A DNA stretch of 64,000 bases from Hamadaea tsunoensis DSM 44101. GTDB taxonomy: Bacteria > Actinomycetota > Actinomycetes > Mycobacteriales > Micromonosporaceae. Position numbers and translations under genes: made by a program. Shown here one piece after another: positions 9,110 through 61,966 of the stretch (the first letter of the stretch is position 1; each line of letters starts with the position of its first letter). The stretch lies in contig NZ_AUAX01000036.1 in assembly GCF_000428945.1 (NCBI RefSeq), positions 1 through 64,000 of the forward strand, read 5' to 3'. The notes beneath the pieces are model-generated. The model was not told where the DNA came from and ran no database searches. It saw only the letters and a list, made by a program, of their open reading frames with translations.

Positions 9110-9173
9110 CCCGGGTTCCCGCTCAGCCCTTACCTTTGTCGCGACTGTCCGATATGTACACCCGGACTTCCGG

Positions 9174-9241
9174 CGATCTTGCGCGAATGTCCCGAATTTC
9201 GTCCGGAGTGCCGGAAATGCCCGGACATTCGCGCAAGATCG
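9174..9241. repeat. 68-bp GATC-bounded palindrome, copy A
   Basis: Perfect 19-bp arms CGATCTTGCGCGAATGTCC (9174-9192) and GGACATTCGCGCAAGATCG (9223-9241) around a partly palindromic centre. Same length and arms as the copies at 24036, 24641 and 49599. Confidence 0.9.
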
Positions 9242-9388
9242 CCGAACGCCTCGACGATCCGGGGCGCCGCCTGACCCGGCCCCGTCGGGCTTTGTCGCTA
9301 CCGTCCGACTCCGGCCCGGTCGGCTCCTGGGCCGACTGGCCTTTGTCGCGACTATCCGATATGGGTGCTCGCTGGCGGGCCGGAGGAG

Positions 9389-9533
9389 TGATCGTTTACG
9401 GCTCAGGTGTAAAACGGCCACCGAGTGCATGATCGTTTACGGTTCTGGAGCACGCTGACCGCCCCTGGCTACACCTGACACGCAAACGATCATGCAGATC
9501 GGGCCGGATTTACACCCCACCCGTCATCGATCA
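9389..9533. repeat. 146-bp class I palindromic element, copy A
   Basis: Outer arms TGATCGTTTACGG... and ...ATCGATCA, with inner arms TGCATGATCGTTT (9425-9437) and AAACGATCATGCA (9484-9496). 145 bp long; related copies start at 24194, 45103 and 61168. Confidence 0.85.
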
Positions 9534-9808
9534 AGAAAACGGCGACCCCGGCCCACCCACCGGAAGATCCTTCCCACACCCCGGGAGAAAGCCGACGATC
9601 AAGCAGCTCACCCAAGATCCACAGCGCCCCACATGTAGCAGACCGCCCCCTACCCACACCCCAGCCGCAAACGATCACCGACGAACCGGCCCACCCCACC
9701 CCCGTACCGGACAGTCACGACAAAGCCCGGGGTAGGCCGACCACAGCCGCGGCATGACCGCGACCCGAGCGTCGGGCGTTCCGAGGGTGGATCTTGAACC
9801 CGCGAAGG

Positions 9809-10486
9809 TCAGGGGGTGAAGCGGTACCCGAGCCCCGGGTCGGTACGCAGATGGCGGGGCCGGCTGGGCTCCGGTTCCAGCTTCCGGCGCAGGTTCGCCA
9901 TGTGCACCCGCAGGTAGTTGGTCTCCGTCTCGTACCGCGGTCCCCAGACCTCGTGCAGCATCTGCCGGTGGGTGATCAGCCGGTCGGGGTTGCGGACCAG
10001 CATCTCCAGCACGTGCCATTCGGTCGGCGTCAGCCGGATCTCCGTCCCGTCCGCGCCGAGTACCCGCCGCGCGGTCAGGTCCACGGTGAACGCGTCCGTA
10101 CGCACGATCGGGATCTGCTCCACCGGCACCGATCGGCGCAGCGCGGCGCGTACGCGGGCCAGCAGCTCGCCGATCGCGAACGGCTTGGTGACGTAGTCGT
10201 CGGCGCCCGCGTCCAACGCGTCGATCTTCGACTCCTCGGTGAGCCGGGCGGACAGCACGATGATCGGGGTCGCCGACCAGCCGCGGAGCGCCTCGACGAC
10301 GCGTACGCCGTCGAGGTCGGGCAGGCCGAGGTCGACGATGACGAGGTCGAGCGGGCCGCGCTGGGCGGCGAGCAGCCCGCTGGTCCCGTCGGGCGCCAGG
10401 CTCACCTCGTAGCCGCGCGCGGTCAGCGCGATCCGCAGCGCCCGCAGCAGCTGCTTGTCGTCGTCGACGACCAGGATGTGGGTCAT
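9809..10486 (-). CDS. KdpE-like OmpR-family response regulator
   Basis: 225 residues: receiver domain (acidic pocket VDDD at 7-10, phospho-acceptor Asp52 in VDLGLPDLDG, Lys in VTKPF) and a C-terminal OmpR-type winged helix ending GLGYRFTP. The sequence is close to the second KdpE at 21569-22246, which has the same length and many identical stretches. It overlaps the upstream sensor kinase gene by 4 bases. This second KdpE-type pair follows the KimA-like permease gene, so it probably controls potassium or osmotic genes, but its target is not shown by the sequence. I leave the symbol empty because the bona fide kdpE is the other copy. Confidence 0.9.
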   Translation of the reverse strand: MTHILVVDDDKQLLRALRIALTARGYEVSLAPDGTSGLLAAQRGPLDLVIVDLGLPDLDGVRVVEALRGWSATPIIVLSARLTEESKIDALDAGADDYVTKPFAIGELLARVRAALRRSVPVEQIPIVRTDAFTVDLTARRVLGADGTEIRLTPTEWHVLEMLVRNPDRLITHRQMLHEVWGPRYETETNYLRVHMANLRRKLEPEPSRPRHLRTDPGLGYRFTP

Positions 10487-11862
10487 GGCGCCGCCGGCAA
10501 GGTGATGATCATCGTCAGGCCGCCGCCGGGCGTCTCCGCCGCGACGATCGTCCCGCCCATCGCCTCCGTGAACCCGCGCGCGATGGCCAGGCCGAGGCCC
10601 AGCCCGCCGCGCGCGCTGCGGTCGTCCAAGCGCTGGAACGGCACGAACATCCGCTCCCGGTCCGCGGCGGGCACCCCGGGTCCGCGGTCCGCGATCCGCA
10701 ACTGCAGCTTCCGGTCCGCGCGTCGCCCGATCACCTGCACGGGTACGCCTTCCGGCGCGACCTGGTGCGCGTTGGCGAGGACGTTGGCCACCACGCGTTC
10801 GAGCAGGCCCGGATCGGCGTACGCGAGGGGGAGGTCGTCGGGCACGTCGAGGTCCACGGCGACCGGTTCGGCCTGGTGCATCAGGGCGGCCGCGACGATC
10901 TCGTCGAGCGCGACCGGCCGGGCGTGGACGCTGAGCGCGCCCGCCTGGAGCCGGCTGAGGGCGAGCAGGTTCTCGACGAGATCGGCCATCTTGTCGGCCG
11001 ACTCCTCGATCGTCTCCAGCAGCTCCGCCTGCTCGGCCGGGGCGAGGTCCAGGTCGGGGTCGCGCAGTCCGGAGACGCCCGCCTTGATCCCGGCCAGCGG
11101 CGTACGCAGATCGTGGCCGACCGCCGCGAGCAGGGCCGCCCGCAACCGGTCGATCTCGGCCAGCTCGGTCGCGTGGGCGGCCTGGAGGGCGAGCTGTTCC
11201 GCCTGGTGCGTACGCGCCGCGGCGGCCGCCAGCCGGGCGAGGAACCGGGGATCGGGCGCGAAGATCGGCGGCCCCTCGACGATCAGCGTCAGCCCTTGCC
11301 CGGCGGCCACCGACAGCACCCGGTTCCCGCCGACCTGACCGCCCACCGCCGCGACGACCGTGCCGTCGTCGTCGAGGAGAGCGGCCGTGTCCATGTGGAG
11401 GGACGCGCGTACGTGGTCGAGGAGGGTCTGCGTCGAGCCCTGGCCGACCGGTTCGGCACTGATCCGGGCGAGCAGTTCCGCCTCGATCCCGGTACGCGCG
11501 GCGGCCGCCCGCTGCCGGGCCGCCACGTCGACGGCGAGGCTGACCGTCGCCGCCACGGCCACGTACGCGATCAGGGTGATCACGTGGTCCCGGCTCTCCA
11601 CGCTCAACGTGTGGTAGGGCGGGATGAAGTAGAAGTTGACGACCAGGTCGGAGACGACGGCCGTGGCCAGCGAGACGGCCAGGCCGCCGACGACCGCGGT
11701 CACCACGACGACGACCAGGTACAGCAGCACGACGCTGCTCAGCGAGATTCCCACGGGCAGTCCCCGCAGGACCAGGGTCAGCCCGACCAGGCCGGCCACG
11801 GCGACCAGCGAGCCGGCGAGCAGCCGGCGGGTGGCGGCCGGGCGGCGCGCGGGCAGAGGCAT
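10483..11862 (-). CDS. KdpD-like sensor kinase lacking the N-terminal KdpD domain
   Basis: About 459 residues. It starts directly with the four-helix DUF4118 membrane block (about 10-120, including NFYFIPPYHTL), then a GAF-like region, a HisKA domain with phospho-acceptor His250 in GHDLRTPL, and a HATPase domain (NVLANAH, DRGPGVP, GLGLGLA). The roughly 330-residue ATP-binding/USP-like input module of full-length KdpD is absent, so sensing must use the membrane and GAF parts only. I chose ATG 11862 rather than the upstream in-frame ATG at 11904, because 11862 lies just outside the preceding gene and has TAACTT exactly 7 nt before it, the leaderless pattern of this window. Paired with the response regulator at 9809. 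Confidence 0.87.
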   Translation of the reverse strand: MPLPARRPAATRRLLAGSLVAVAGLVGLTLVLRGLPVGISLSSVVLLYLVVVVVTAVVGGLAVSLATAVVSDLVVNFYFIPPYHTLSVESRDHVITLIAYVAVAATVSLAVDVAARQRAAAARTGIEAELLARISAEPVGQGSTQTLLDHVRASLHMDTAALLDDDGTVVAAVGGQVGGNRVLSVAAGQGLTLIVEGPPIFAPDPRFLARLAAAAARTHQAEQLALQAAHATELAEIDRLRAALLAAVGHDLRTPLAGIKAGVSGLRDPDLDLAPAEQAELLETIEESADKMADLVENLLALSRLQAGALSVHARPVALDEIVAAALMHQAEPVAVDLDVPDDLPLAYADPGLLERVVANVLANAHQVAPEGVPVQVIGRRADRKLQLRIADRGPGVPAADRERMFVPFQRLDDRSARGGLGLGLAIARGFTEAMGGTIVAAETPGGGLTMIITLPAAP

Positions 11863-11869
11863 ACCAGCC

Positions 11870-11875
11870 AAGTTA
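11870..11875 (-). promoter_or_regulatory. -10 element, leaderless start of short KdpD
   Basis: TAACTT on the minus strand, 7 nt before the ATG at 11862; it overlaps the stop codon of the KimA-like gene. Confidence 0.5.
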
Positions 11876-13900
11876 ACGGGTGGCCCCGGCGATCGCGGGC
11901 ACATCCGGCCGTGGCTCGGCCGCCGGGGCGGGAGCGTCCGGCGGGGTGCCCGGCGAGCCGGCCGGAGCGGCAGCGGGCTCGGCGGACTCCAGCTGCCACG
12001 GCACGCTCGTCACCATCACGCCGCGCTGGAACAGCAGCCGCGCCTTGAGCCGCAGCGCCGACTGGTTGTGCAGCAGGTGTTCCCACCAGCGGTCGACCAC
12101 GTACTCCGGGATGAACACCACGATGAGGTCCCGCGGCCGTTCGCGGTGCAGCTCGGCGATCCAGCCCAGCACCGAACCGGTGATGTCGCGGTACGGCGAG
12201 TCGATGACCGTCAACGGCACCGGGATGTCGTGCTCGTCCCATTCCTGCTGGAGATGGCGTACCTCCTCGGGGGTGATCGCGACCGTCAGCGCGGTGAGGC
12301 TGTCGGGGCGGGTCGCGCGCGCGTACGCGAGGGCCTGAATGGTCGGCCGGTGCAGGCGGGAGACGAGCACGACGGCCCGGATCCGGCTGGGCAGGACCAT
12401 GCCGCCGGGAGCGGGCGCCAACTCCGCCGCGACCCGGTCGTAGTGGCGGCGGATGCCGCGCATCATCGCGTACAGGATGGGGATGGCGATCACGACCAGG
12501 TACGCGCCGTGCGTGAACTTCGTGACGGTGACGATGACGAGCACGAGCCCGGTGAAGCAGGCGCCGAAGGCGTTGATGAGCCGGGAGTGGTGCATACGCC
12601 GGCGCGCGGCCGGGTCGCGCTCGACGCGCAGCAGCTTGTTCCAGTGCCGGACCATGCCGGTCTGCGACAGGGTGAACGAGGTGAAGACGCCCAGGATGTA
12701 GAGCTGGATGAGGCTCGTGACCGACCCCGCGTACGCGTAGATCAGCGCCCCCGCGATGAGCGCGAGCAGCAGGATCCCGTTGGAGAAGGCGAGCCGGTCG
12801 CCGCGGGTGTGCAGCTGGCGGGGCAGGTACCGGTGCTCGGCGAGGATCGAGCCGAGCAGCGGGAAGCCGTTGAAGGCGGTGTTGGCCGCGAGGATGAGGA
12901 TCAGGGCCGTGGCCGTCTGGATGTAGAAGAAGAACGGCGAGCCGGTGCCCCCGAAGACGGCCGCGGCGAGCTGCGCGATGACCGTACGCTGCGCGTCCGT
13001 GGTGCAGTTGCCGGTGAACCCGACGAGGTCGCAGGCGTTCTCGACGTAGTGCACCTTCGCGATGAGAGCGAGCGCCGTGATCCCGGCGAACATCACGATG
13101 GACAGGATCCCCATCGCGGCCATCGTCCGGGCGGCGTTCTCCCCCTTGGGTTTCCGGAACGCCGGTACGCCGTTGGAGATCGCCTCGGCGCCGGTGAGCG
13201 CGGTGCAGCCGGACGAGAACGCGCGCAGGGCCAGGAGCAGGAGGGCGAGACCGGTCAGCCCCACGTGCCCGGGTGCGGGGATGATGTGCCACCCGGCGCT
13301 CTCCGCGACCGGCGGCCGCCCGATCGCGACCTGCACGAGACCCGTACCGATCATCGCGAGGATGCCGACGACGAACAGGTAGGTCGGCACGGCGAAGATC
13401 CGGCCGGACTCGCGTACGCCGCGCAGGTTCAGGGCGGCCAGCAGCGCGACGAAGACCAGGTTGACCAGTACCCGGTAGGGGTTCAGCTGCGGCAGCGCCG
13501 AGATGATGTTGTCCACGCCGGCCGCCACCGAGACGGCGACGGTCATGATGTAGTCCACCATCAGCGCGGCGGCCACCACGAGACCGGCGGAGCGGCCGAG
13601 GTTCTCGCTCGCCACCTCGTAGGACCCGCCCCCGCTCGGGTACGCCCGCACGACCTGCCGGTACGACAGCACGACCACGCCCAGCAGCACGATGACGCCG
13701 AGCCCGACCCAGGGCGCCAGGTACAGGTACGCCATCCCGCCGAGGGTCAGGACGAGCAGGATCTCCTGGGTGGCGTACGCGACCGAGGACAGGGGGTCGC
13801 TGGCGAAGATGGGCAGCGCGATGCGCTTGGGCAGCAGTTGTTCCGTCAGCCGGTCGCTGCGCAACGGGCGGCCGACCACGACCCTCTTCAGATCCAGCAC
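11873..13900 (-). CDS. KimA-like APC-superfamily potassium transporter
   Basis: 675 residues. About 12 hydrophobic segments fill residues 35-460, beginning with the family-typical LPIFASDPLSSVAYATQEIL and YPSGGGSYEVASENLG; a cytosolic C-terminal domain (about 470-640, with SRIRAVVLVSRLHRPTIQAL) and a Pro/Ala-rich tail follow. This architecture (APC core plus C-terminal soluble domain) is that of the KimA/YdaO high-affinity K+ importer. Its position back-to-back with kdpFABC and before a KdpDE-like pair supports K+ as substrate; amino-acid transport is the alternative annotation. GTG start at 13900 with GGAGG only 1 nt away, so the exact start is uncertain. No c-di-AMP riboswitch is recognisable upstream. 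Confidence 0.85.
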   Translation of the reverse strand: MLDLKRVVVGRPLRSDRLTEQLLPKRIALPIFASDPLSSVAYATQEILLVLTLGGMAYLYLAPWVGLGVIVLLGVVVLSYRQVVRAYPSGGGSYEVASENLGRSAGLVVAAALMVDYIMTVAVSVAAGVDNIISALPQLNPYRVLVNLVFVALLAALNLRGVRESGRIFAVPTYLFVVGILAMIGTGLVQVAIGRPPVAESAGWHIIPAPGHVGLTGLALLLLALRAFSSGCTALTGAEAISNGVPAFRKPKGENAARTMAAMGILSIVMFAGITALALIAKVHYVENACDLVGFTGNCTTDAQRTVIAQLAAAVFGGTGSPFFFYIQTATALILILAANTAFNGFPLLGSILAEHRYLPRQLHTRGDRLAFSNGILLLALIAGALIYAYAGSVTSLIQLYILGVFTSFTLSQTGMVRHWNKLLRVERDPAARRRMHHSRLINAFGACFTGLVLVIVTVTKFTHGAYLVVIAIPILYAMMRGIRRHYDRVAAELAPAPGGMVLPSRIRAVVLVSRLHRPTIQALAYARATRPDSLTALTVAITPEEVRHLQQEWDEHDIPVPLTVIDSPYRDITGSVLGWIAELHRERPRDLIVVFIPEYVVDRWWEHLLHNQSALRLKARLLFQRGVMVTSVPWQLESAEPAAAPAGSPGTPPDAPAPAAEPRPDVPAIAGATR

Positions 13901-13948
13901 ACCTCCAGTGCACCGGGCGCGGGCGCGCGCGTACCTGATCTTGATGAC

Positions 13949-14054
13949 TTCTTGACGACGTCCCGGACCTTCTTGACGGACTGTTGGCGCCCGCCCGGAC
14001 CCCGCGTAGGGAAAGCGTCAAGAAACCGGGCGGCCCCGTAGGGAGAGCGTCAAA
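13949..14054. promoter_or_regulatory. Shared KimA/kdp control region with four boxes
   Basis: Two direct TTCTTGACG boxes at 13949-13957 and 13970-13978 (21 bp apart) face two boxes in inverted orientation within an imperfect direct repeat, CGTAGGGAAAGCGTCAAG (14005-14022) and CGTAGGGAGAGCGTCAAA (14037-14054), 32 bp apart. The spacings of two and three helical turns are what an OmpR-family regulator such as KdpE would need. Assignment to KdpE is inference. Confidence 0.55.
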
Positions 14055-14095
14055 GCCCCTGCCCGCCGGACTCCCGCCGGCGTTGACTTCGCCAC

Positions 14096-14179
14096 ATGCG
14101 TGATCTCGTGTTCGTCGTCGTGACCGTGGCCTGTTTCGGGCTCATGGCCTTGCTGGTCCGGGGGGCGGAACGGCTGTGA
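14096..14179 (+). CDS. 27-aa membrane peptide upstream of kdpF
   Basis: ORF of 27 codons starting ATG at 14096 (MRDLVFVVVTVACF...) with one hydrophobic helix (residues 4-21) and a basic/acidic C-terminal end (RGAERL). Its stop codon overlaps the GTG of kdpF. Peptides of this size and shape stand before kdpF in other actinobacteria, and the tight coupling suggests a small membrane subunit or stabiliser of the Kdp complex. No ribosome-binding site is obvious. Function unknown. Confidence 0.6.
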   Translation: MRDLVFVVVTVACFGLMALLVRGAERL

Positions 14180-14265
14180 ACGCCGCCAACATCGCCGGGC
14201 TGATCGTCGCGGTCGCCCTGGCCGTCTTCCTGGTCGTCGCTTTGATCAAACCGGAGCGCTTCTAA
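14176..14265 (+). CDS. kdpF: K+-transporting ATPase subunit KdpF
   Basis: 29 residues from GTG 14176 ([20 protein letters not shown] then VALIKPERF), a single transmembrane helix ending in the KPERF motif diagnostic of KdpF. It stabilises the KdpABC complex in the membrane. The start overlaps the stop of the 27-codon ORF and kdpA begins 1 nt after its stop, so the whole set is translationally coupled. Confidence 0.9.
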
Positions 14266-14266
14266 C

Positions 14267-18075: not shown

Positions 18076-18079
18076 CGCC

Positions 18080-24035: not shown

Positions 24036-24103
24036 CGATCTTGCGCGAATGTCTCAAATTTCGTCCGGAGTACCCGAATTGCCCGGACATTCGCGCAAGA
24101 TCG
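24036..24103. repeat. 68-bp palindrome, copy B1
   Basis: Arms CGATCTTGCGCGAATGTC and GACATTCGCGCAAGATCG; outer bases CGA/TCG extend the pairing. The centre is the reverse complement of copy B2. Confidence 0.9.
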
Positions 24104-24193
24104 TCGGCGGGGTTGGGGGTCGGGGCCGCCGGCTCGGTTCGGCTCGGTCGGGTTCGGCTCGGCTCGGTTCGGCTCGGCTCGGCCGGTCGAGGG

Positions 24194-24339
24194 TGATCAT
24201 TTACGGCTGAGGTGTGAATTCCGCCGCCGGTTGCATGATCGTTTACGGTTCCGGGGCGCGCTGACCGTCCCCGGCTACACCTGACGCGTAAACGATCATG
24301 CAGAACGGGCTGAATTTACGCCTCAGCCGTAAACGATCA
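24194..24339. repeat. 146-bp class I element, copy B
   Basis: Outer arms TGATCATTTACGGCTGAGG and CCTCAGCCGTAAACGATCA; inner arms TTGCATGATCGTTTACG and CGTAAACGATCATGCAG. Best-preserved symmetry of the four copies. Confidence 0.9.
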
Positions 24340-24420
24340 AGGGATCGGCGACTGCGGACCACCTGGTGGAAGATCGTTCCTGCATCGCGGAAGGCGGCTG
24401 GCGCCGGCGCGGCTTGGCCG

Positions 24421-24526
24421 TGATCCACAGCGCTCGGGATGTAGAAATCGCGTCCTCGCCCAAGATCCAAAACGGTCTGGATGTAGGAAGCGGCCCGTAG
24501 CGACACCTCAGCCGCTGTGGATCACG
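24421..24526. repeat. GATCCACAGC-class element, copy B
   Basis: TGATCCACAGCGCTCGG at the left pairs with CCGCTGTGGATCA at the right; the interior carries further GGATGTAG repeats. Related copies at 44878-45022 and 61396-61497. Confidence 0.8.
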
Positions 24527-24640: not shown

Positions 24641-24708
24641 CGATCTTGCGCGAATGTCCGGGCAATTCAGGCACACCGGACGAAATTCGAGACATTCGCG
24701 CAAGATCG
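24641..24708. repeat. 68-bp palindrome, copy B2 (inverted)
   Basis: Same 68-bp element as copy B1 in opposite orientation, judged by the asymmetric centre; about 540 bp separate the two. Confidence 0.9.
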
Positions 24709-28358: not shown

Positions 28359-29483
28359 GTGGGACTCGAACGGTCACAGGGGTGGCGCGGCTGGCGGCTC
28401 CCGCTGAACCTCCGGTTGCCCCGGGGTTCGCATCCCGCCCCCGGGCCGGAGGCTCCCGGCAGTGACACCTCGGTCGTCGACTGCGCCGTCTACCGCAACG
28501 GGCTGCGCGAGGACCGCCGGCTCGGCTACGCGCAGGCGTACGAGGAGGTCCGCCAGATCACCGCGGCGGCCCACGATCCCGACGCCGCGTTCGTCTGGCT
28601 CGGCCTGCTGGAACCGACCGAGGCCGCCATGGCCGACGTCGCCCGCGTCTTCGGCCTGCACGAGCTGGCCGTGGAGGACGCGCTCACGGCCAACCACCGC
28701 GCCAAGATCGAGCGCTACGGCGACGTCGCGTTCTTCGTCCTGCGCACGACCGGTTACGTCGAGCACGCCGACTTCACCGAGACGTCGGAGGTCGTCGAGA
28801 CCGGCGCGGTCATGATGTTCATCGGCCCGCAGTTCGTGATCACCGTTCGCCACGGCGCCCCCGGCGCCCTCCAGCCCGTCCGGGCGGCCCTCGAAGCGAA
28901 GCGGTCACGCCTGGCCCTCGGCCCGTGGGCGGTCGCGCACGCGATCTGCGACCGGCTCGTCGACACGTACCTCGACGTCTCGAACCTCATCGAAGCGGAC
29001 GTGGACCTGGTCGAGGAGCGCGTCTTCGGCCGCGAGGCCGCCAACCCCGGCATCGCCCAGATCTACCAGCTCAAGCGCGAGCTGATGGAGTTCAAGCGGG
29101 CCGTCCTGCCGCTGCAGCGGCCGCTCGCGTTCCTCAGCGAGGAGAAGGAACTCTTCCCCAAGGAACTGCGTAACTACTTCCGCGACGTCAACGACAACCT
29201 CGCCCGCATCGCCGACCGGGTCGCCGGCCTCGACGACCTGCTCAACTCGATCCTCCAATCGCGGCTGGCGCAGGTGAGCATCGACCAGAACAACGACATG
29301 CGCAAGATCGCGGCCTGGGCGGCCATCGCGGCCATGCAGACGGCGATCGCGGGAATCTACGGCATGAACTTCGACAACATGCCCGAGCTGCACTGGCGCT
29401 ACAGCTACGCGGGAGTATGGGTGATCATGCTCGCCGGCGGCGCCGGCCTCTACACCCTTTTCCGCCGCTCCGGCTGGCTATAA
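28359..29483 (+). CDS. corA: CorA-family Mg2+/Co2+ channel
   Basis: 374 residues from GTG 28359; an upstream start at 28284 would add 25 Arg-rich residues. A large soluble N-terminal funnel domain (alpha/beta, then long helices about 200-310) leads to two C-terminal transmembrane helices joined by the signature GMN (335-337 in YGMNFDNMPE), with the basic end RRSGWL. CorA proteins are pentameric divalent-cation channels of the inner membrane. The length is somewhat above the E. coli protein, due to the N-terminus. Monocistronic, followed by a short repeat block and the convergent aldo/keto reductase gene. Confidence 0.94.
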   Translation: MGLERSQGWRGWRLPLNLRLPRGSHPAPGPEAPGSDTSVVDCAVYRNGLREDRRLGYAQAYEEVRQITAAAHDPDAAFVWLGLLEPTEAAMADVARVFGLHELAVEDALTANHRAKIERYGDVAFFVLRTTGYVEHADFTETSEVVETGAVMMFIGPQFVITVRHGAPGALQPVRAALEAKRSRLALGPWAVAHAICDRLVDTYLDVSNLIEADVDLVEERVFGREAANPGIAQIYQLKRELMEFKRAVLPLQRPLAFLSEEKELFPKELRNYFRDVNDNLARIADRVAGLDDLLNSILQSRLAQVSIDQNNDMRKIAAWAAIAAMQTAIAGIYGMNFDNMPELHWRYSYAGVWVIMLAGGAGLYTLFRRSGWL

Positions 29484-29485
29484 GA

Positions 29486-29630
29486 TCAAGATCTTTTAAG
29501 GTCGTTTGTCCCGGGTCCGTCGATCTCACCTCCGCTCCTCCCGCGGGAGACCGCTCCGGCCCCGCCACTTCGTGACGGGGCCTGCGCTGCCGGCACAGTG
29601 GGGCGAGCATCCCGCACCGCGGATCGGTCG
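29486..29630 (+). repeat. CCCGGGTTCGTCGATCTC block, copy 1
   Basis: Starts with AGATCAAGATCTTTTAAGG and runs through GTCGATCTCACCTCCGCTCC to AGTGGGGCGAGCATCC. Contains hairpin GGCCCCGCCAC/GTGACGGGGCC, which may end corA transcription. Other copies: 34640-34812 (inverted) and 60975-61075. It fills the 165-bp gap 29484-29648. Confidence 0.75.
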
Positions 29631-29648
29631 CGCTCGGAACCTCGATGT

Positions 29649-33817: not shown

Positions 33818-33852
33818 GGCTCGCCCCACCAGGCCGCTCAGACCCCGCTCTA

Positions 33853-33927
33853 GATCCCGTTTGGATCAGGGATTTCACCCGAATCATGGCCCGTGATTAC
33901 GGTGGTTTCCCTGATCCAAACGGGATC
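33853..33927. repeat. 75-bp GATCCCG palindrome, copy C1
   Basis: Arms of 20 bp, GATCCCGTTTGGATCAGGGA (33853-33872) and its exact complement (33908-33927); the centre has nested arms AATCA/TGATT and CACC/GGTG. Copy C2 at 35238-35312 has the same length. Confidence 0.92.
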
Positions 33928-33964
33928 ATGCGAGCCTTGCGCCGGGGGCGGGGCGCAGCGCGCG

Positions 33965-34473: not shown

Positions 34474-34587
34474 GGCCTTGATCGTGTCGCATGTATATGT
34501 CGAAGTAGATCGTCTACCCGTGATCGTGTAGCGCATATATGTCGCAGCGGACGGCTTTTGACATATACGGCTTACATGATCAAGGCC
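34474..34587. repeat. 114-bp palindromic element, copy C
   Basis: Outer arms GGCCTTGATCG and TGATCAAGGCC; interior ATATATG/ACATATA symmetry. Low GC compared with the genome. Same length as the copy at 61730-61843. Confidence 0.88.
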
Positions 34588-34639: not shown

Positions 34640-34812
34640 GTTTCCGGGCCGGCTCCCCAGATCGGTGACCGAACCGCGGTGGATGATGCGTCGCCCCACT
34701 GTGCTGGCAGTGGAGTCCCCGGAGCGCAGCGATAGGGGCGGAACGGTCTCCCGCGTGAGGGGCGGAGGTGAGATCGACGAACCCGGGACAAAAATCTTGA
34801 TTCTAACGATCT
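34640..34812 (-). repeat. CCCGGGTTCGTCGATCTC block, copy 2 (inverted)
   Basis: Reverse complement of the block seen at 29486 and 60975, including AGTGGGGCGA, GTTCCGCCCC and GTCGATCTCACCTCCGCC; ends in TTTTTGTCCCGGG-like sequence read on the minus strand. Confidence 0.78.
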
Positions 34813-34892
34813 TCACCTTTCCCGCCGTATGTCTTCGGATCGTCCTGGACCTCGATCCAGTGCCCGGATTCTGTAGTAATAGATCTCCAGGG

Positions 34893-34958
34893 CGTGATCA
34901 AGTTTCCTGGAGCTGCAGAATCGGTCCGCTTTCTGCAGGATTCAGGAACTTGATCATG
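34893..34958. repeat. 66-bp palindromic element, copy C
   Basis: Arms CGTGATCAAGTTTCCTG and CAGGAACTTGATCATG with internal GCTGCAGAA/TTCTGCAGG-type symmetry. Copies at 60650-60715 (66 bp) and a diverged one at 49313-49380. Confidence 0.88.
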
Positions 34959-35005
34959 CTTTCCCGTCGTGGCCGAACGCTCCTGTCGAGCGGTCCGTCG
35001 CGGGG

Positions 35006-35151
35006 TGATCGGTTGCCGCTATTACGGCAGTCCACGGCGGATAGCCTTGATCGAATACCGGCTATCCGGCAAGGAAGCGTTCTCTCGCCGTAATGACGGT
35101 ATTTGATCAAGGGAATCGGCGTCGCAGTGCCGAGATAGCGGTACTTGATCA
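35006..35151. repeat. 146-bp class II element, copy C
   Basis: Outer arms TGATCGGTTGCCGCTATTAC and GATAGCGGTACTTGATCA; inner palindrome CCTTGATCGAATACCG (35045) to CGGTATTTGATCAAGG (35112). Exactly 146 bp like the copies at 49107 and 60750. Confidence 0.9.
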
Positions 35152-35237
35152 AGACGGTCGTGCCGGCGACATGAGAGGCCGACGCCCAAACCTGGACTAC
35201 GACGATCCCGCCGCCCAAGCCCCGACCCAGCCCCCAA

Positions 35238-35312
35238 GATCCCGTTTGGATCAGGGATCGCCACGTAATCATGGCCCAAGATTCGGGTGTTTTCCCTGAT
35301 CCAAGCGGGATC
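35238..35312. repeat. 75-bp GATCCCG palindrome, copy C2
   Basis: Arms identical to copy C1 except for one base (AAGCGGG); flanking CCAA/TTGG extends the stem to 24 bp. Sits about 75 bp past the modC stop codon, where it may act as a terminator. Confidence 0.9.
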
Positions 35313-44789: not shown

Positions 44790-44877
44790 AGCCTCTCCGG
44801 CCGCACGCGGGGGATCCGTCGCGGCGGGCAAGATCGCTCGGTCGTACCGGGAGCCGCCTCGGTCGCTCGCCGACTGG

Positions 44878-45022
44878 TGATCGAGAACGGCTGGGATGTC
44901 ATTTCGCACTCCCGGCCTAGATCGATTGCGGCGGACGTGCAGCCTGGGCACGTTTTCCGCATCCGAGGCGCTTTCGCTCTTGGGCCTAGGCGGGTTTTTG
45001 CATCCCAGCCGCTGTGGATCAC
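44878..45022. repeat. GATCCACAGC-class element, copy D
   Basis: TGATCGAGAACGGCTGGGAT at the left pairs with CATCCCAGCCGCTGTGGATC at the right; a TCTAGGCC/GGCCTAGG symmetry in the centre. Confidence 0.8.
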
Positions 45023-45102
45023 GCGCGATTCGCGCCACCGCCGCCTGCCGCCCGCGATGAGGGAATGATCATCCGGCTCATGAGACGCGATCACTTACGC
45101 CG

Positions 45103-45248
45103 TGATCGTTTACGGGTGAGGTGTGATTTCCGGTCCCCACTGCATGATCATTTACGCGCCAGGTGTCACCAGTGGCCGTATATGCACCCCAGAACCGTAA
45201 ATGATCATGCGGTGTGGGCCGAAACGACACCTCACCCGTAAACGATCA
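45103..45248. repeat. 146-bp class I element, copy D
   Basis: Outer arms TGATCGTTTACGGGTGAGGT and ACCTCACCCGTAAACGATCA pair perfectly (20 bp); inner arms GCATGATCATTTACG and CGTAAATGATCATGC. Confidence 0.92.
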
Positions 45249-48999: not shown

Positions 49000-49006
49000 G
49001 TCTCGC

Positions 49007-49012: not shown

Positions 49013-49106
49013 CTTTCCGCCCAGGCCCACCACCCGCGTCGCATGATCGTCGGCCCCGTCTCGGGGCTCGGCAGCCGGCGGCTCGGGTCGGCCGCCCGGT
49101 TGCGGG

Positions 49107-49252
49107 TGATCGTTTACCGTCATGACGGCACCGCGATGGCGATCGCCTTGATCAAATACCGCCATTTCGGCAGGAGAGCGCTTCCCCGCCGGATAGACGG
49201 TATTTGATCACGAGGATCCGCCCTGGTCTGCCGTAATAGTGGTAAACGATCA
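49107..49252. repeat. 146-bp class II element, copy E
   Basis: Outer arms TGATCGTTTACC and GGTAAACGATCA; inner palindrome CCTTGATCAAATACCG (49146) to CGGTATTTGATCA. Exactly 146 bp. Confidence 0.9.
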
Positions 49253-49312: not shown

Positions 49313-49380
49313 GCTTGATCAAGCTCCCTGATGCTGTCGAAAACGGGCCGATTCAGCAGATCCACGGAACTTGATCAAGC
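49313..49380. repeat. 66-bp-class element, diverged copy E
   Basis: GCTTGATCAAGCTCCCTG pairs with CACGGAACTTGATCAAGC; 68 bp because of small indels. Confidence 0.7.
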
Positions 49381-49598: not shown

Positions 49599-49666
49599 CG
49601 ATCTTGCGCGAATGCCTCAAAATCTGACCGGAATGCCCGAATAGCCCGAACATTCGCGCAAGATCG
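49599..49666. repeat. 68-bp palindrome, copy E
   Basis: CGATCTTGCGCGAATG and CATTCGCGCAAGATCG arms, 68 bp, with a diverged centre (CTCAAAATCTGACCGG). Confidence 0.88.
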
Positions 49667-53771: not shown

Positions 53772-53790
53772 CGCCCGGCCACGCTCAGCC

Positions 53791-53830: not shown

Positions 53831-53866
53831 CCACCGTGGACAGAAGTCCCACCGACAGGAGACTCG

Positions 53867-56351: not shown

Positions 56352-57358
56352 GCGAACTGACCGTTCCGGGCGCGGCTCCCGGCGTACCGGTGAAAAGAGA
56401 ACTGAACAGCGAGCGGTTCGCGGGCCTCGCGCAGCGGCACGGCGCGCTCGCGGTGCTGGCGGTGGTGGTGATCGCGGCCTCGCTGATCTGGCCGACGTTC
56501 TCGAACGGCGACAATCTCGCGGGCATCGCGGTGCACTCGTTCTACCCGGTCATCATCGCGCTGGGCATGACGTTCGTGATCGTGAGCGGCGGCATCGACC
56601 TGTCGGTGGGCTCGGTCTTCGCGCTCGGCGGCGTGCTCGCCGCCTACGCCAGCCAGTGGGGACCGGTGGCCGCGATCGGACTGCCGCTCGCCGTCTGCGC
56701 GGTGTTCGGGCTGGTCCAGGGCACGATCATCGCGAAGACCGGCATGGCGCCGTTCATCGTCACGCTCGCCGGCCTGCTCGGCGCCCGCGGCCTGCTGCTC
56801 GCCGTCACCACCGAGGGCTCGAAGACCTACCTCTTCCCGGCCGGCGACGGCTTCGTGCGGCTCGCGCAGGGCAAGCTCTTCGGAATCTCCTACCCGGTGT
56901 ACGCGGCGGTGCTGCTCGCGGTGCTCGCGGCGGTCCTGCTCCAGCGCACCAAGTACGGCCAGGCGCTCTTCGCGGTGGGCGGCAACGAGGACGCCGCCGC
57001 CCTGATGGGCCTGCCGGTCGCGCGCATCAAGATCCTCACGTATACGCTCTGCGGCCTGCTCGCGGGCCTCGCCGGCGTGCTCAACGCGGCCTGGACGGGC
57101 AGCGGTGTGACCATCATCGGGGTGGGGGACGAGCTGAACGCGATCGCGGCGGTCGTCATCGGCGGCACGCTGCTCGTCGGCGGGGCCGGGGGGATCAGCG
57201 GCACGGTCTGCGGCGTTCTCCTGCTCGGTGTCATCCAGAACGTGATCAACCAGATCGGCTCGCTGACCTCGTCGGTGCAGTCGGTCGTCAGCGGCGCGTT
57301 CCTCGTCGTCGTGGTGGTCGCGCAGACGTATCTCAGCAAGGCTCGGCGGTTGCGATGA
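56348..57358 (+). CDS. Sugar ABC transporter permease (YjfF-like)
   Basis: 336 residues from ATG 56348, coupled to the preceding permease by ATGA. Same family: ALGMTFVIVSGGIDLSVGSV, then KTGMAPFIVTLAGLLGARGL and AAVVIGGTLLVGGAGGISGT. Two different permeases plus one double ATPase and a YtfQ-like protein is the exact subunit set of the YtfQRT-YjfF galactofuranose importer, unlike RbsABC or XylFGH, which have one permease. Confidence 0.93.
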   Translation: MSELTVPGAAPGVPVKRELNSERFAGLAQRHGALAVLAVVVIAASLIWPTFSNGDNLAGIAVHSFYPVIIALGMTFVIVSGGIDLSVGSVFALGGVLAAYASQWGPVAAIGLPLAVCAVFGLVQGTIIAKTGMAPFIVTLAGLLGARGLLLAVTTEGSKTYLFPAGDGFVRLAQGKLFGISYPVYAAVLLAVLAAVLLQRTKYGQALFAVGGNEDAAALMGLPVARIKILTYTLCGLLAGLAGVLNAAWTGSGVTIIGVGDELNAIAAVVIGGTLLVGGAGGISGTVCGVLLLGVIQNVINQIGSLTSSVQSVVSGAFLVVVVVAQTYLSKARRLR

Positions 57359-57377
57359 AGATGGGGGTTACCGTTCG

Positions 57378-58394
57378 GTGGGCGTGAGTCTGAAGGACAT
57401 CGCCAAGCACGCCGGAGTGTCGCTGGCCACGGTGTCCAATGTGGTCAACGGCTACCGCCCGGTCGGCGAGGCCACGCGGGAACGCGTACAGCAGGCGATC
57501 GACGAGCTGGGGTACACGCCCAACCTCAGCGCGCGGCACCTGCGCCGGGGGCGTACCGGGGTGATCGCCCTGGCCATCCCGGAGCTGAACAACCCCTACT
57601 TCGCGGAGCTGGCGGGGTTCGCCATCCGCGAGGCGCGCAACCTCGGCTACACCCTGCTCATCGACTACACCGACGGCGACCGGGACACCGAGCTGACCCT
57701 CGCCGAGGGGTTCCGCGAGCAGATCATCGACGGCATCATCCTCAGCCCGGTGCAGATCACCCGCGGCGACATCCTCGGCCGCAGCAGCGACCTGCCGCTG
57801 GTGCTCATCGGCGAGAGCGTCTTCGACGTGCCGCACGACCACATCGCGATCGACAACCTCGCCGCGAGCCACGCCGCCGTGCAGCACCTCGTGTCGCTCG
57901 ACCGGCGCCGGATCGCGTTCGTCGGCGCGCACGAGGACGTCAACCGGCAGCCGGCCCACCTGCGCCTGTCGGGGTACCGGGAAGCGCTGGCCACGGCCGG
58001 CCTGCCCGTCGACCCGTCGCTCGTCGCCACCGCCACCCAGTTCGGCCGGGCCGACGGTCTCACCGCCATGCGTACGCTGCTGGCGCTGCCCGAACCGCCG
58101 GACGCGGTGTTCGCGTACAACGACCTCATCGCGATCGGGGCGATGCGCGCGATCACCGAGGCGGGCCTGCGCATCCCGGAGGACGTGGCCGTGATCGGCT
58201 TCGACGACGTCGAGGAGGGCCGGTTCAGCAACCCGACGCTCACCACGATCGCCCCGGACAAGGAGCACATCGGCCGCCTCGCCGTACGCTCGCTGGTCGA
58301 CCGGGTCGAAGGCAAGGCGGTGGACGCCCCGCGGGACGTGGCTTCGCCGTTCCGGCTCGTGACACGGGAAAGCACGCTGGGCCGCCGCCGATGA
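57378..58394 (+). CDS. LacI-family transcriptional regulator
   Basis: 338 residues from GTG 57378 (GTG 57384 is the next candidate). N-terminal LacI HTH with hinge: [37 protein letters not shown]; then a periplasmic-binding-protein-like effector domain ([35 protein letters not shown]). It stands 19 nt after the transporter genes and is the natural regulator of the sites at 52559 and, possibly, 53316. The effector is probably the imported sugar. Confidence 0.93.
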
Positions 58395-58410
58395 TCGGGC
58401 AGGTACCGAC

Positions 58411-59040
58411 TCACATCTGTGTACCGGTGAGATCCGCGGTGAAGGCGACGAATCCGTCGACGGCATCGGCTAGTCCGATGGCCATCATTGTCACTAACTG
58501 ATCGGCAACGGCGAACTGGAAACAGATTACGAGACCGCCGAAGACAAGCGCGGCTGCCTTCAACCAGAAGATCGCAGGGGCTGAGCGGCGTCGGCTGCTC
58601 AGCGCCTGCATCCACGGCCGCACCCAACCGGGAAAGTCACCCGGTCGTCGACTCATGGCGAGGGCCAAGAGCAAGAGCGCGATGAGCGTGCCAAGACTGG
58701 TCCGTAGATCGAGGACCGTCCCGCCGATGGCTTGGAACATCTTCGCGGCCTCTGACGGGCGGTAGGCGATGAAGAAGACGGAGAAACTGATGCCGAAGCA
58801 CATCAGGAGGATTCTGCGAGGCGAGGGAGCTGAAGCTTGCCAAGCTGACGGCGGCATCGGCGAACGTGGGACCGTGGCGGCCGGTTGATCGGTCACCCCG
58901 CTCGGGAGCGACGGGGATGACCGCGAGAGGTGCCGTGTCCGGATCGTCTCCCACCCCTTGGGGAGAAAGAACATGGCTATCTGCGCGATAGCGGCCAACC
59001 CGGCCAGCACGGCGGCGAGTACGCCAAAGATGTGCTTCAC
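58411..59040 (-). CDS. Four-helix membrane protein of lower GC, function unknown
   Basis: 209 residues from GTG 59040, -10 TAGCAT 6 nt upstream. Four hydrophobic segments (about 5-28, 75-95, 105-130, 165-190) with a Ser/Pro-rich loop between the first and second. GC content and codon use are visibly lower than the neighbours (many AAG, GAT, ATT, ACT codons), which suggests recent acquisition. No family recognised. Ends 16 bp from the convergent LacI gene. Confidence 0.7.
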
Positions 59041-59046
59041 GCAACG

Positions 59047-59052
59047 ATGCTA
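59047..59052 (-). promoter_or_regulatory. -10 element of the 209-aa membrane protein gene
   Basis: TAGCAT on the minus strand, 6 nt before GTG 59040. Confidence 0.45.
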
Positions 59053-59136
59053 AGAAGTTGCGGATCGGTTCCACATTGAACGACCGGTGGACACGGCGAC
59101 TCGATCAGCGGCCGGCTGGCGCCTAACGTCTCCGAC

Positions 59137-60324
59137 TCACTCTGGTGCGGGGACGATCTCGGCGGTGCGGACGTGGCCGAACTTCGGGGTCACTTCGAGC
59201 CGTAGCCACATGTCCTTGCGCAGCCTGTCGTGCAGTTGCTGGTCGACGTTGTAGAGGATGGCCTTCGGGCCGCCCTCGTCGACGGCCACGCGATAACTCG
59301 CCGAGTCGTCGGACTCGCTGGACTCGATGCGCACCACCGGCCCGGCGAGGACGCGTACGGGGTGGGTCAGGTCGTAGAGCCCCTGGTAGACGATCCTGGT
59401 GACGAAGCCGCCGACCACGAGCCAGATCGCCCACCCCGCCAGCGTCGCCGGGTACGCCCACAGCGCATGCGCCTGCCCGTCGAGCAGATCCGCGCTGATG
59501 AGGCCGAGGGTCAGGAGCCACCCTCCGAAGAAGACGATCGCGCCCGGCAGCGACCAGAGTGCGACGCCCGGACTCGAACCGAACATGATCCCGCGCCCCT
59601 CGGACACCTCGACCCGATGCCAGGTGCCGCCCCGGTTCGACCAGGCCGGCGTCCTGCTCCCGGCCGACTCCGTGAACGGGGCGGGGGCAAGACCCGGCAC
59701 GGCGACCCCGGCCGCGACCGCGTACGCGAGCCGCCGGTCACCGGGAACGATCCGCGCCTGGGCGGGCCTTTCCAGTCGCCGGGCCGTCGCGGCCACCTCT
59801 ACTCCCCGGCCCCGGGGGACGAGCCGCTTCATCCGCGTCAACGGCTGCGCGGTCCCGAGCGTCACCAGGATCAACAGCGAGATCACGCCGGGATGGCCGA
59901 TCCGCCACAGGTAGAGGAACACGGCCGCCCAGAAGCCGAGGAACAGTAGCCAGACGAGCGCCCTGACGCCGCCGGTGATCCGGGGCGCGACGAGCCCGCG
60001 CTGCCGACCCTCGGCGTGGACGAGCTCGACCAGCCGCTCACGCCACGCCTTCGCCTGCCGGTCCGACCCGAGATCGATCCCGTCGATCGGAGCGGGCCCG
60101 GAGCCGGCCCGGTCGCGGGCGGTCACGGTGTCGAAGACATGCCGCTCGACCGGGCTGAGATCGGCCGGATGCGCCGCCGGCGGGCTGACGGTCCCCACGC
60201 GTTCGTCCACAATGATCTTCCCGCGGGCGGCGAGATCGAGCATCGTCGCGTACGCCGCCGCGACCACCAGACGTCGCGGCGGCTGCGTCAACAGCGCCAC
60301 GACGGCGGGACTCTCATCGATCAC
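59137..60324 (-). CDS. DUF2207-like membrane protein
   Basis: 395 residues from GTG 60324, chosen because TACTCT lies 6 nt before it (an upstream frame to 60369 adds 15 atypical residues). The N-terminus VIDESPAVVALLTQPPRRLV, AAAYATMLDLAARGKIIVDE is a winged-helix-like module seen in DUF2207 proteins (protein turnover at low-complexity ends). Two hydrophobic pairs (about 120-150 and 260-315) follow, then a beta-rich C-terminus. Function unknown; likely inner membrane. Confidence 0.75.
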   Translation of the reverse strand: MIDESPAVVALLTQPPRRLVVAAAYATMLDLAARGKIIVDERVGTVSPPAAHPADLSPVERHVFDTVTARDRAGSGPAPIDGIDLGSDRQAKAWRERLVELVHAEGRQRGLVAPRITGGVRALVWLLFLGFWAAVFLYLWRIGHPGVISLLILVTLGTAQPLTRMKRLVPRGRGVEVAATARRLERPAQARIVPGDRRLAYAVAAGVAVPGLAPAPFTESAGSRTPAWSNRGGTWHRVEVSEGRGIMFGSSPGVALWSLPGAIVFFGGWLLTLGLISADLLDGQAHALWAYPATLAGWAIWLVVGGFVTRIVYQGLYDLTHPVRVLAGPVVRIESSESDDSASYRVAVDEGGPKAILYNVDQQLHDRLRKDMWLRLEVTPKFGHVRTAEIVPAPE

Positions 60325-60330
60325 GATCGC

Positions 60331-60336
60331 AGAGTA
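60331..60336 (-). promoter_or_regulatory. -10 element of the DUF2207-like gene
   Basis: TACTCT on the minus strand, 6 nt before GTG 60324. Confidence 0.5.
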
Positions 60337-60649
60337 GCTGTGCGCTTCCACCCGGAAAATCAAGATCAAATTTATGGCCCTCCGTCTGCATGTGTGGGTA
60401 TGTCCCTTCGGTGATCGTGTGGGTCAGGATCGCGGCGAGCGATGCCGGCCTGGTCGTTGGCCGGGTCCTGATGCGGGGGGAGCGATCCATCGCGTCGGAT
60501 CATCGCAGGTGGCCTGGACCGGGCCTGGGCTTTGTCGCGGCTGTCCGGTATGGAGGCTGTCCGACGCGTCCGGGGTGGCTCTCTCATGGGTCGGGGCGTC
60601 GCTGGGCCTCGATCCAGTACCCGGATGCTGTAGTAGTGGATCTCTGTGG

Positions 60650-60715
60650 CGTGATCAAGTTCCCTGGAGCTGCGGATTCGGCCTGTTTTCTGCAGGATTT
60701 GGGAACTTGATCATG
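60650..60715. repeat. 66-bp palindromic element, copy F
   Basis: Arms CGTGATCAAGTTCCCTGG and GGGAACTTGATCATG; 66 bp as copy C. Confidence 0.88.
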
Positions 60716-60749
60716 CCTTCACGTCTGATGGGGCGATCACTGTCCCGAG

Positions 60750-60895
60750 TGATCATTTACCGCCATTACGGCGGGACGCGGCAGATAGCCTTGATCAAGT
60801 ACCGTCTATTCGGCAAAGGAGGGCCCGCCCGCCGTAATGACGGTATTTGATCAAGGAAATCGGCGTCGCGATGCCGTTATAGCGGTACTTGATCA
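60750..60895. repeat. 146-bp class II element, copy F
   Basis: Outer arms TGATCATTTACCGCCATTAC and TATAGCGGTACTTGATCA; inner CCTTGATCAAGTACCGTC (60789) to GACGGTATTTGATCAAGG (60856). Same order as in island C: 66-bp element first, then this one. Confidence 0.9.
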
Positions 60896-60974
60896 AGGTG
60901 ATCGTGTCGCGGGTGGGGACGAAGTTGTCGGCCCCGACGGATCACCCACACAGGCAACCGGAGAGCCAAATTTA

Positions 60975-61075
60975 TGTCCCGGGTTCGTCGATCTCACCTC
61001 CGCTCCTCGCGCGGGAGACCGTTCTGGCCCTGGGGGCCTCCACTGTCAGGTGAGTGGGGCGAAGCATCCTTCACC
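60975..61075 (+). repeat. CCCGGGTTCGTCGATCTC block, copy 3
   Basis: From TGTCCCGGGTTCGTCGATC through GCGGGAGACCG to GAGTGGGGCGAAGCATCC; same orientation as the copy at 29486. Confidence 0.78.
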
Positions 61076-61167
61076 GCGCTTCGCTCACCGCTTCATCCCT
61101 TACCCCGGCCTTTGTCGCGACTGTCCGATATGGGTGTCCGGCGGTAGGCGGTGGTGGCCGGTGGGGT

Positions 61168-61314
61168 TGATCGTTTACGGGTGGGGTGTGAAAACGGGCG
61201 TCGATTGCATGATCGATTACGGTTCTGGTGCGCTGTGACCGGCCCTGGGTACACCTGGACCGTAATTGATCATGTAGGCCAGGGCCGAAAGTGCACCTCG
61301 GCCGTAAACGATCA
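61168..61314. repeat. 146-bp class I element, copy F
   Basis: Outer arms TGATCGTTTACGGGTGGGGT and CCTCGGCCGTAAACGATCA; inner TTGCATGATCGATTACGG and CCGTAATTGATCATG. 147 bp. Confidence 0.88.
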
Positions 61315-61395
61315 AGAAATCGGTGATCGTGGTTCACCTGGCGGAAGATCGATTCCGCATCACGGGCTATAGCCGATGACGGGCCGGCATTGGGG

Positions 61396-61497
61396 TGATC
61401 CACAGCGGCCGGGATGTAATACGCGGCCCTCGCTCAAGATCCAAAGCGGGCCAGACGCGGCATGCCGGCATCGGCTACATCCCAGCCGCAATGGATC
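61396..61497. repeat. GATCCACAGC-class element, copy F
   Basis: TGATCCACAGCGGCCGGGAT pairs with CTACATCCCAGCCGCAATGG/ATC. Confidence 0.8.
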
Positions 61498-61657
61498 GAG
61501 AGAGCAGGCCTAAAACTACATTCCAGCCGCAAACGATCACCGGCCGTCCGGCCCGCCCACCCCTCCATATCGGACGGTCGCGACAAAGGCCAAGCGAGCC
61601 GACCCGAAACGGCGACCTCGACCGCCAAGAGGCGTGGCGGCGCTCTCCGAGGCCTTC

Positions 61658-61869
61658 GACGGTTTTGCGCGAATGTCCAGCCTTGGCTGCATGTGTGGGC
61701 GATCCGTCGCGCTGGCGATCGCTTCACTCGGCCGTGATCGTGTCGCGCGTACATGTCGAAGGTGATCGCCAGGCCGTGATCGTGTCGCGCATATATGTTG
61801 CTGTGAGCGCATTTCGACATATACGAGTTACATGATCAAGGCCGACGCGCGACATTTGCGCAAGATCGC
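61658..61869. repeat. 68-bp palindrome interrupted by a 114-bp element
   Basis: A left arm TTTTGCGCGAATGTCC (61663-61678) and a right arm GACATTTGCGCAAGATCG (61851-61868) are those of the 68-bp palindrome, but 170 bp containing the 114-bp element separate them. One element appears inserted into the other. Confidence 0.75.
61730..61843. repeat. 114-bp palindromic element, copy F
   Basis: GGCCGTGATCG to TGATCAAGGCC, interior CGCGCATATATG and CGACATATACG as in copy C; exactly 114 bp. Confidence 0.88.
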
Positions 61870-61966
61870 CGGACGGCCTCGCGCACAAGTCGGACAGTCG
61901 CGACAAAGGCCAAGGGCAGAGGTGAACCAGGAGGAGGGGTGAATCCCGAACCCGCGACCAAAGCCG

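What the first reader, a model, noticed from the sequence alone, without database searches (positions are those of the whole stretch)
9110..61966. A modular set of GATC-bounded palindromic elements fills seven intergenic islands
Several element classes recur between islands at near-fixed length: 68 bp (9174, 24036, 24641, 49599), 146 bp class I (9389, 24194, 45103, 61168; 145-147 bp), 146 bp class II (35006, 49107, 60750), 66 bp (34893, 60650; diverged at 49313), 114 bp (34474, 61730), 75 bp (33853, 35238) and a 101-145 bp class (24421, 44878, 61396). Every class is an inverted repeat whose tips carry GATC, and several contain a second palindrome inside. Fixed length, shared tips and many copies in 52 kb argue for a mobilised family (MITE- or REP-like), but I know no named family with these arms, and no transposase or RAYT gene is present here.
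Basis: seen in the sequence. Interest (0 to 1): 0.9.

Follow-up and report, generated by a model that had tools for sequence, protein, structure and literature searches.

The report
Mobile GATC-tipped hairpins at gene ends
The spaces between genes in this soil actinomycete (genus Hamadaea) hold hundreds of copies of short DNA hairpins of several families that come and go between species and seem to take the place of the ordinary stop signals at gene ends.

Summary
In detail: the seven classes are present at the stated places and lengths. They are large families: 182 copies of the 68-bp class and 262 of the 57-bp core of the 75-bp class in the genome, 0 for reversed patterns. The genus is most likely Hamadaea. 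Its four genomes share GATC-tipped hairpins with species-specific repertoires; orthologous gaps show presence, absence and exchange of families.

Two kinds: (1) solo palindromes of fixed length, GATC inside both arms, no target duplication, no RAYT in the four genomes; (2) nested composites, one of them a MITE with terminal repeats and 8-bp duplications (window 60376-60967).

Elements favour convergent gaps and are rare in divergent ones. Convergent gaps with an element seldom also hold an ordinary terminator-like hairpin (pieces of 45-149 bp: 3/23 against 41/63, p=2e-5). Best reading: REP-like dispersed hairpins that serve as exchangeable bidirectional terminators. Termination is inferred; covariation is weak; the mobilising enzyme was not found. 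New variant of a known kind.

The parts
9174..9241 (+). 68-bp palindrome (F68)
   Evidence: profile hit; 182 copies genome-wide
24036..24103 (+). 68-bp palindrome (F68)
24641..24708 (-). 68-bp palindrome (F68), inverted to the copy at 24036
49599..49666 (+). 68-bp palindrome (F68)
61657..61871 (+). F68-like arms (61657-61678 and 61850-61871) with the 114-bp class between them
   Evidence: read by eye
9388..9533 (+). class I nested palindrome (I146)
24193..24339 (+). class I nested palindrome (I146)
45102..45248 (+). class I nested palindrome (I146)
61168..61314 (+). class I nested palindrome (I146)
35005..35151 (+). class II nested palindrome (II146)
49106..49252 (+). class II nested palindrome (II146)
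60749..60895 (+). class II nested palindrome (II146), inside composite II
34896..34957 (+). 66-bp class (F66)
60653..60714 (+). 66-bp class (F66), inside composite II
49316..49376 (-). 66-bp class (F66), diverged and inverted
34477..34586 (+). 114-bp class (F114)
61733..61842 (+). 114-bp class (F114)
33850..33928 (+). 75-bp class (F75: 57-bp genus-wide core plus an outer shell)
35236..35312 (+). 75-bp class (F75)
24420..24526 (+). 101-145-bp class (F110)
44877..44982 (+). 101-145-bp class (F110)
61395..61500 (+). 101-145-bp class (F110)
9341..9725 (+). composite I: class I and related modules between inverted 23-nt arms (9341-9363, 9703-9725); no target duplication seen by eye
61110..61588 (+). 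composite I between inverted 23-nt arms (61110-61132, 61566-61588)
60376..60967 (+). composite II, a MITE: both terminal repeats; 8-bp duplication AAATTTAT at 60368-60375 and 60968-60975; target is the head of a 150-bp unit
29480..29634 (+). 150-bp unit (F140), alone between convergent genes; not in the finding
34666..34819 (-). 150-bp unit (F140)
60972..61085 (+). 150-bp unit (F140), split by composite II

Best explanation
The islands consist of a superfamily of non-autonomous, REP-like palindromic repeats whose arms carry GATC near the tip. Shown: the solo elements (75/57, 68 and, in sister species, 59 bp) exist in tens to hundreds of copies per genome, keep their exact length, lie mostly after genes, and differ in presence and family between species at the same gene ends. 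Shown: longer islands are palindromes nested in one another, and one composite is a MITE with terminal repeats and 8-bp target duplications that inserted into other repeats. Inferred: in RNA the solo hairpins end transcription from both sides, so a copy that lands at a gene end can take over from the ordinary terminator and is then kept; that explains the place, the mutual exclusion with ordinary terminators and the turnover of families. Inferred: an unidentified enzyme, not a RAYT, copies the solo elements, and the shared GATC is part of what it or a GATC-binding chromosome protein reads.
For: Copies and fixed length. Shared GATC tip in otherwise unrelated stems: 69/89 long hairpins here and 22/34 in G003 (chance 8.3 and 2.75), against 2/24 in 11 genomes of other genera. 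Place: an element in 24/38 convergent, 11/88 tandem, 0/58 divergent gaps of 80-200 bp; F57 in 0 divergent gaps of 86 copies. Orthologous gaps: family swapped, lost or gained. An ordinary hairpin in G003 stands where G002 has F57, between the same gene ends (site 109538). Mutual exclusion with ordinary terminator-like hairpins in convergent gaps: 3/23 against 41/63 length-matched pieces, p=1.9e-5. MITE: two exact and one 7-of-8 target duplications among 3 copies with both ends.
Against: No RNA data. No T-run: the F57 flank is T-rich before and A-rich after the hairpin. Covariation is weak: F57 2 of 5 measures not clearly above shuffles and 3 above; F59 1104 paired cells against 1092 with sd 9.6 shuffled. 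Exclusion is not seen in tandem gaps or for pieces of 30-44 bp. At C8 237516 a composite stands beside a retained ordinary hairpin. Some copies lie in divergent gaps (3 of 43 F75, 4 of 39 F68). No mobilising enzyme was identified. Ortholog samples are small, and the MAG loci were chosen for holding F57.
Confidence: 0.55

Rival explanations
1. Purely selfish repeats: the elements do nothing for the cell and lie after genes only because insertions into promoters and genes are removed by selection.
For: Depletion in divergent gaps is what purging alone would give; weak covariation; nested composites and one MITE show parasitic behaviour.
Against: Purging does not predict exclusion with ordinary terminators or replacement of one hairpin family by another at one gene end.
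Confidence: 0.22
2. The elements insert into ordinary terminator hairpins and destroy them, as some insertion sequences target REPs; exclusion then reflects the target, not a shared function.
For: Exclusion in convergent gaps; composite II inserted into the centre of a 75-bp palindrome; insertion sequences near F75 and II146 copies.
Against: Flanks of F57, F68 and F75 copies are not halves of a broken hairpin: complementarity within 2 sd of shuffles at each offset tested.
Confidence: 0.1
3. The tips are binding sites for a GATC-binding nucleoid protein such as Gbn; the palindromes are chromosome-organising sites.
For: Gbn is specific to Actinobacteria, binds GATC, best GATCWT, and has a Micromonospora/Salinispora cluster of homologues (PMC9239103, abstract and passages). 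GATC is the one feature that the tips share.
Against: The commonest tips read GATCAGGG, GATCACGG and GATCCCG, not GATCWT; long conserved arms and fixed length exceed such a site. Gbn was not searched for in these genomes.
Confidence: 0.07

Closest known systems
REP / REPIN repeats, GTAG- and CGTC-tagged superfamilies (Di Nocera 2013, PMC3733652, abstract and passages read)
   Same: Short palindromes, several families per genome, intergenic, mostly downstream of genes; the CGTC superfamily also lacks a dedicated transposase.
   Different: The tag here is GATC, itself a palindrome, inside both paired arms instead of unpaired at one end; no RAYT gene in the four Hamadaea genomes; sits in Actinobacteria, which that text does not name.
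MITEs (bacterial miniature inverted-repeat transposable elements)
   Same: Composite II: terminal inverted repeats, no apparent gene, 8-bp target duplications.
   Different: Solo palindromes show no target duplication; no autonomous partner with the same ends found.
Intrinsic (Rho-independent) terminators
   Same: Strong hairpins just after stop codons, between convergent genes above all; exclude ordinary hairpins there.
   Different: No T-run, conserved arm sequence, dispersed in many copies.
DNA uptake sequences arranged as inverted pairs that act as terminators in Neisseria and Haemophilus (recalled; Kingsford 2007 seen only as a cited title)
   Same: A dispersed repeat doing the work of terminators at gene ends.
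   Different: Several unrelated stems with fixed lengths, not one short word; any link to DNA uptake was not tested.
ISL3-family insertion sequences (8-bp duplications and GGCTC-type ends are recalled, not looked up)
   Same: End sequence and 8-bp duplication of composite II look alike.
   Different: Only partial ISL3 transposase matches in G000 and G003, without matching ends.

Membership tests
REP/REPIN (RAYT-mobilised) | RAYT (Y1_Tnp, PF01797) gene in the genome | tested here: not met
   0 matches in G000-G003; one in G141; 5 of 14 control genomes ring
REP/REPIN (RAYT-mobilised) | GTAG (or CGTC) tag, unpaired, at one end | tested here: not met
   Consensus ends read GATC inside both arms; F68 has CGTC/GACG at its feet, but paired
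REP/REPIN (RAYT-mobilised) | Many palindromic copies, intergenic, mostly downstream of genes | tested here: met
MITE (composite II) | Terminal inverted repeats with a target-site duplication | tested here: met
   3 of 30 scanned loci keep both ends; duplications 8/8, 8/8 and 7/8 (the last read by eye)
MITE (composite II) | Autonomous element with the same ends | tested here: inconclusive
   12 DDE_Tnp_1 loci and 4 partial ISL3 loci lack the ends; other transposase families not searched
MITE (solo palindromes F57, F68, F75) | Target-site duplication | tested here: not met
   Direct repeats at the borders no commoner than in shuffles for 89, 32 and 35 copies
Intrinsic terminator | Hairpin downstream of stop codons | tested here: met
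Intrinsic terminator | T-run after the hairpin | tested here: not met
   F57 right flank A-rich, left flank T-rich
Intrinsic terminator | Transcripts end there | not testable with these tools
   no RNA data held
Known structured RNA family | Rfam match at gathering score | tested here: not met
   0 matches in the window
DNA uptake sequence | Favoured by a DNA uptake machine | not tested
   no search made

The most novel reading that the evidence does not exclude
Micromonosporaceae, Hamadaea above all, carry a third REP superfamily, GATC-tagged, in which many unrelated stems are exchangeable terminator cassettes: one hairpin is swapped for another at the same gene end by a dedicated, still unknown enzyme that reads the GATC tips, so that gene ends are maintained by mobile DNA more than by inherited terminators.
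Probability: 0.15. Interest if true: 0.85.

Novelty: new variant of a known kind. Interest (0 to 1): 0.62.

Why it matters
It would show mobile DNA taking over a basic punctuation job at gene ends across a genome, with several competing families and natural swaps between sister species to study. The fixed lengths, the GATC common to unrelated stems and the missing RAYT make the search for a new mobilising enzyme concrete. It also gives a meaning to hundreds of intergenic hairpins that matched no Rfam family in this window.

Tried and rejected
RAYT/IS200-type mobilisation: no Y1_Tnp in the four Hamadaea genomes. DDE_Tnp_1 insertion sequences as donors: 12 hits in G000, no matching ends; three of the loci have F75 or II146 pieces nearby. 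ISL3 as donor of composite II: partial transposase matches only (1 in G000, 3 in G003), no matching ends. Plasmid or phage origin: no blastn match for window 60530-61910 in the two collections. A gene flanked by elements, as RAYT genes often are: 9 genes in the samples have elements on both sides; I looked only at their first residues and made no family search on them. Covariation as proof of RNA structure: weak. Wobble pairs: 43 G-U against 42 A-C cells in the 50 typed copies, which says little where both strands are transcribed. Target duplications of composite I: none seen by eye among the listed arm pairs. The first exclusion test was unfair, because an element splits the gap; it was redone on length-matched contiguous pieces. 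The first F75 border test found 0 copies through a wrong expression and was redone. Element definition differs: profile hits in G000, GATC hairpins of score 13 or more elsewhere. The gene caller is my own: good for stops, weaker for starts and small genes. In the automatic table the target hairpins of L140 and L158 are missed by the cut-offs; one search shows them.
Full report
What was checked. The window is bases 1-64000 of contig 33 of a 9.48-Mb, 68-contig genome, G000. The seven element classes are where the finding says, at the stated lengths. In unnamed whole genomes the core is found in all four genomes of the window's genus (262, 181, 148 and 102 copies) and once, with an unrelated interior, in the 146 other family genomes searched. 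I take the genus to be Hamadaea, Micromonosporaceae.

Genome-wide copies. Whole-genome counts: 182 F68 and 262 of the F75 core, F57. Both patterns are palindromic, so forward and reverse counts are equal; reversed controls in G000 are 0. Of 250 family genomes only G000 and G141 (one copy) hold the F68 pattern.

Two kinds of element. Solo palindromes keep their length: F68, F57/F75 and, in sister species, a 59-bp family, F59. F75 of this genome is the genus-wide 57-bp palindrome with an outer shell that brings a second GATC. Composites are nested: class I and 101-145-bp palindromes lie between inverted 23-nt arms, often again between two F68 or two F140. By eye, class I and class II consist of a ~25-nt unit beginning TGATC in the order forward, forward, reverse, reverse. 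One pair of 23-nt arms has nothing between (C8 231526), which fits growth by insertion at palindrome centres.

One composite is a MITE. Composite II ends in GGCTCTCCGGTCGCTTGTGTGGGTC. Of 30 loci scanned, 3 keep both ends (up to 8 mismatches of 25), with 8-bp direct repeats at the borders: GAATCTTG (exact, inside an F75), AAATTTAT (exact, window 60368-60375 and 60968-60975, in the head of an F140) and CTAGAAAG/CTGGAAAG (7 of 8, by eye). Solo palindromes show no such duplication (89 F57, 32 F68, 35 F75).

GATC. It lies in the first 12 nt of 69/89 long intergenic hairpins of G000 contigs 1 and 8 (8.3 expected from GATC density) and 22/34 of the sister genome G003 (2.75 expected), but of 2/24 from 11 genomes of other genera. 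The stems differ otherwise. Another GATC-tipped family, TGATCAAGAGGTTTGCGTCA with a 16-17-nt spacer in the listed copies, occurs in 6 of 150 family genomes, 5 of one genus and 1 of another. The F68-like copy of G141 lies between two convergent genes by eye. Repertoires differ: F59 has 39, 60 and 80 copies in G001-G003 and 0 in G000; composite I gives no match in G001-G003; window 60380-61085 gives one 43-bp match in G003 only.

Position. With my gene caller an element lies in 24/38 convergent, 11/88 tandem and 0/58 divergent gaps of 80-200 bp; of longer gaps in 21/28, 26/78 and 10/57. In tandem gaps solo elements lie nearer the upstream stop: medians 51 against 89 bp (17 F75) and 57 against 243 bp (19 F68). 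F57 in the MAG loci: 32 convergent, 32 tandem, 0 divergent, 3 inside a called gene, 19 at locus edges, of 86.

Turnover. At F57 sites compared between G001, G002 and G003 loci (flanks 75-97% identical) 14 alignments cover 12 sites, 11 resolved: same family in 4, another GATC family in 6, nothing in 1 (families read by eye). In one of the 6 (L158) the F59 is shared and F57 is extra; in another (L143) the F57 locus seems to keep a decayed F59. In 60 kb of G002 against G003, 49 orthologous gaps include 10 with a GATC hairpin on at least one side: 3 same family, 1 mosaic, 2 element against another hairpin, 4 element against nothing. At G002 C56 109538 the G003 gap holds an ordinary GC-rich hairpin between the same gene ends. 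One site has F59 in G002, F57 in G001 (L132) and nothing in G003. Between G000 and G003, gaps of 473 and 1187 bp with composites face gaps of 27 and 50 bp. Gain and loss are not told apart.

Exclusion with ordinary terminators. In convergent gaps ordinary hairpins (score 10 or more, span up to 50) are common without an element and rare with one. Contiguous pieces of 45-149 bp in G000 and G003: 41/63 against 3/23, Fisher p=1.9e-5; with G002 and the MAG loci (chosen because they hold F57) 49/78 against 4/33, p=7.8e-7. Pieces of 30-44 bp show no difference (1/14 against 0/26), nor do tandem gaps significantly. Flanks of solo elements are not halves of a broken hairpin: complementarity is within 2 sd of shuffles.

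Against. No RNA data; no T-run; covariation weak: F57 3 of 5 measures beyond almost all shuffles, 2 not, F59 about 1.2 sd above shuffles in 50 of 80 G003 copies; no enzyme found; at C8 237516 a composite stands beside a retained ordinary hairpin; ortholog samples are small and partly chosen for F57.

Literature. Di Nocera 2013 (abstract and passages) defines GTAG- and CGTC-tagged REPs; 'GATC', 'Actinobacteria', 'Micromonospora' and 'Salinispora' do not occur in its held main text. RepRanger (PMC12306157, passages) holds no 'GATC' or 'Hamadaea'. PMC13155455 (passages) holds neither. Gbn, a GATC-binding chromosome protein of Actinobacteria (PMC9239103, abstract and passages), is a possible reader of the tips. 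Searches listed no title that reports these repeats; only open-licence papers are held, and listed papers were not otherwise opened.

Verdict.

Noticed in passing
window 138-4295: Large RHS-repeat protein with a C-terminal pretoxin-HINT domain, a polymorphic-toxin-like gene; described only.
   Followed up: no
window 29480-29634, 34666-34819, 60972-61085: A ~150-bp repeat with a variable AT-rich head (AAGATC units) and a conserved GC-rich body, about 30 copies in 864 kb, often as an inverted pair around composites; not palindromic as a whole.
   Followed up: partly
L076, L077, L079 (G000 C31, C37, C47): An insertion sequence with a 476-aa DDE_Tnp_1 frame has pieces of F75 or II146 within its flanks; it may have inserted into or beside these palindromes.
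   Followed up: no
L104:8203-8270 (G141): A single F68-like palindrome with the same arms but another loop, between two convergent genes, in another genus.
   Followed up: partly
G006, G063, G090, G130, G139, G161: GATC-tipped 56-57-bp palindrome TGATCAAGAGGTTTGCGTCA with a variable spacer in other genera of the family.
   Followed up: partly
G002 C56 102123; L143:2166: Long hairpins with the similar loop GGGATCAAGCCTGACCGCCC and different stems; the first is kept in G003.
   Followed up: no
F75 copies, e.g. C1:274320-274396 and C33:80659-80734: Partial tandem copies of the element tip (GATCCCG / CGGGATCTTGG) lie in the flanks of many F75 copies.
   Followed up: no
L170:6637; G002 C56 151532: A further palindrome family CGCGTTATCCGGG without GATC tip in the sister genomes.
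   Followed up: no
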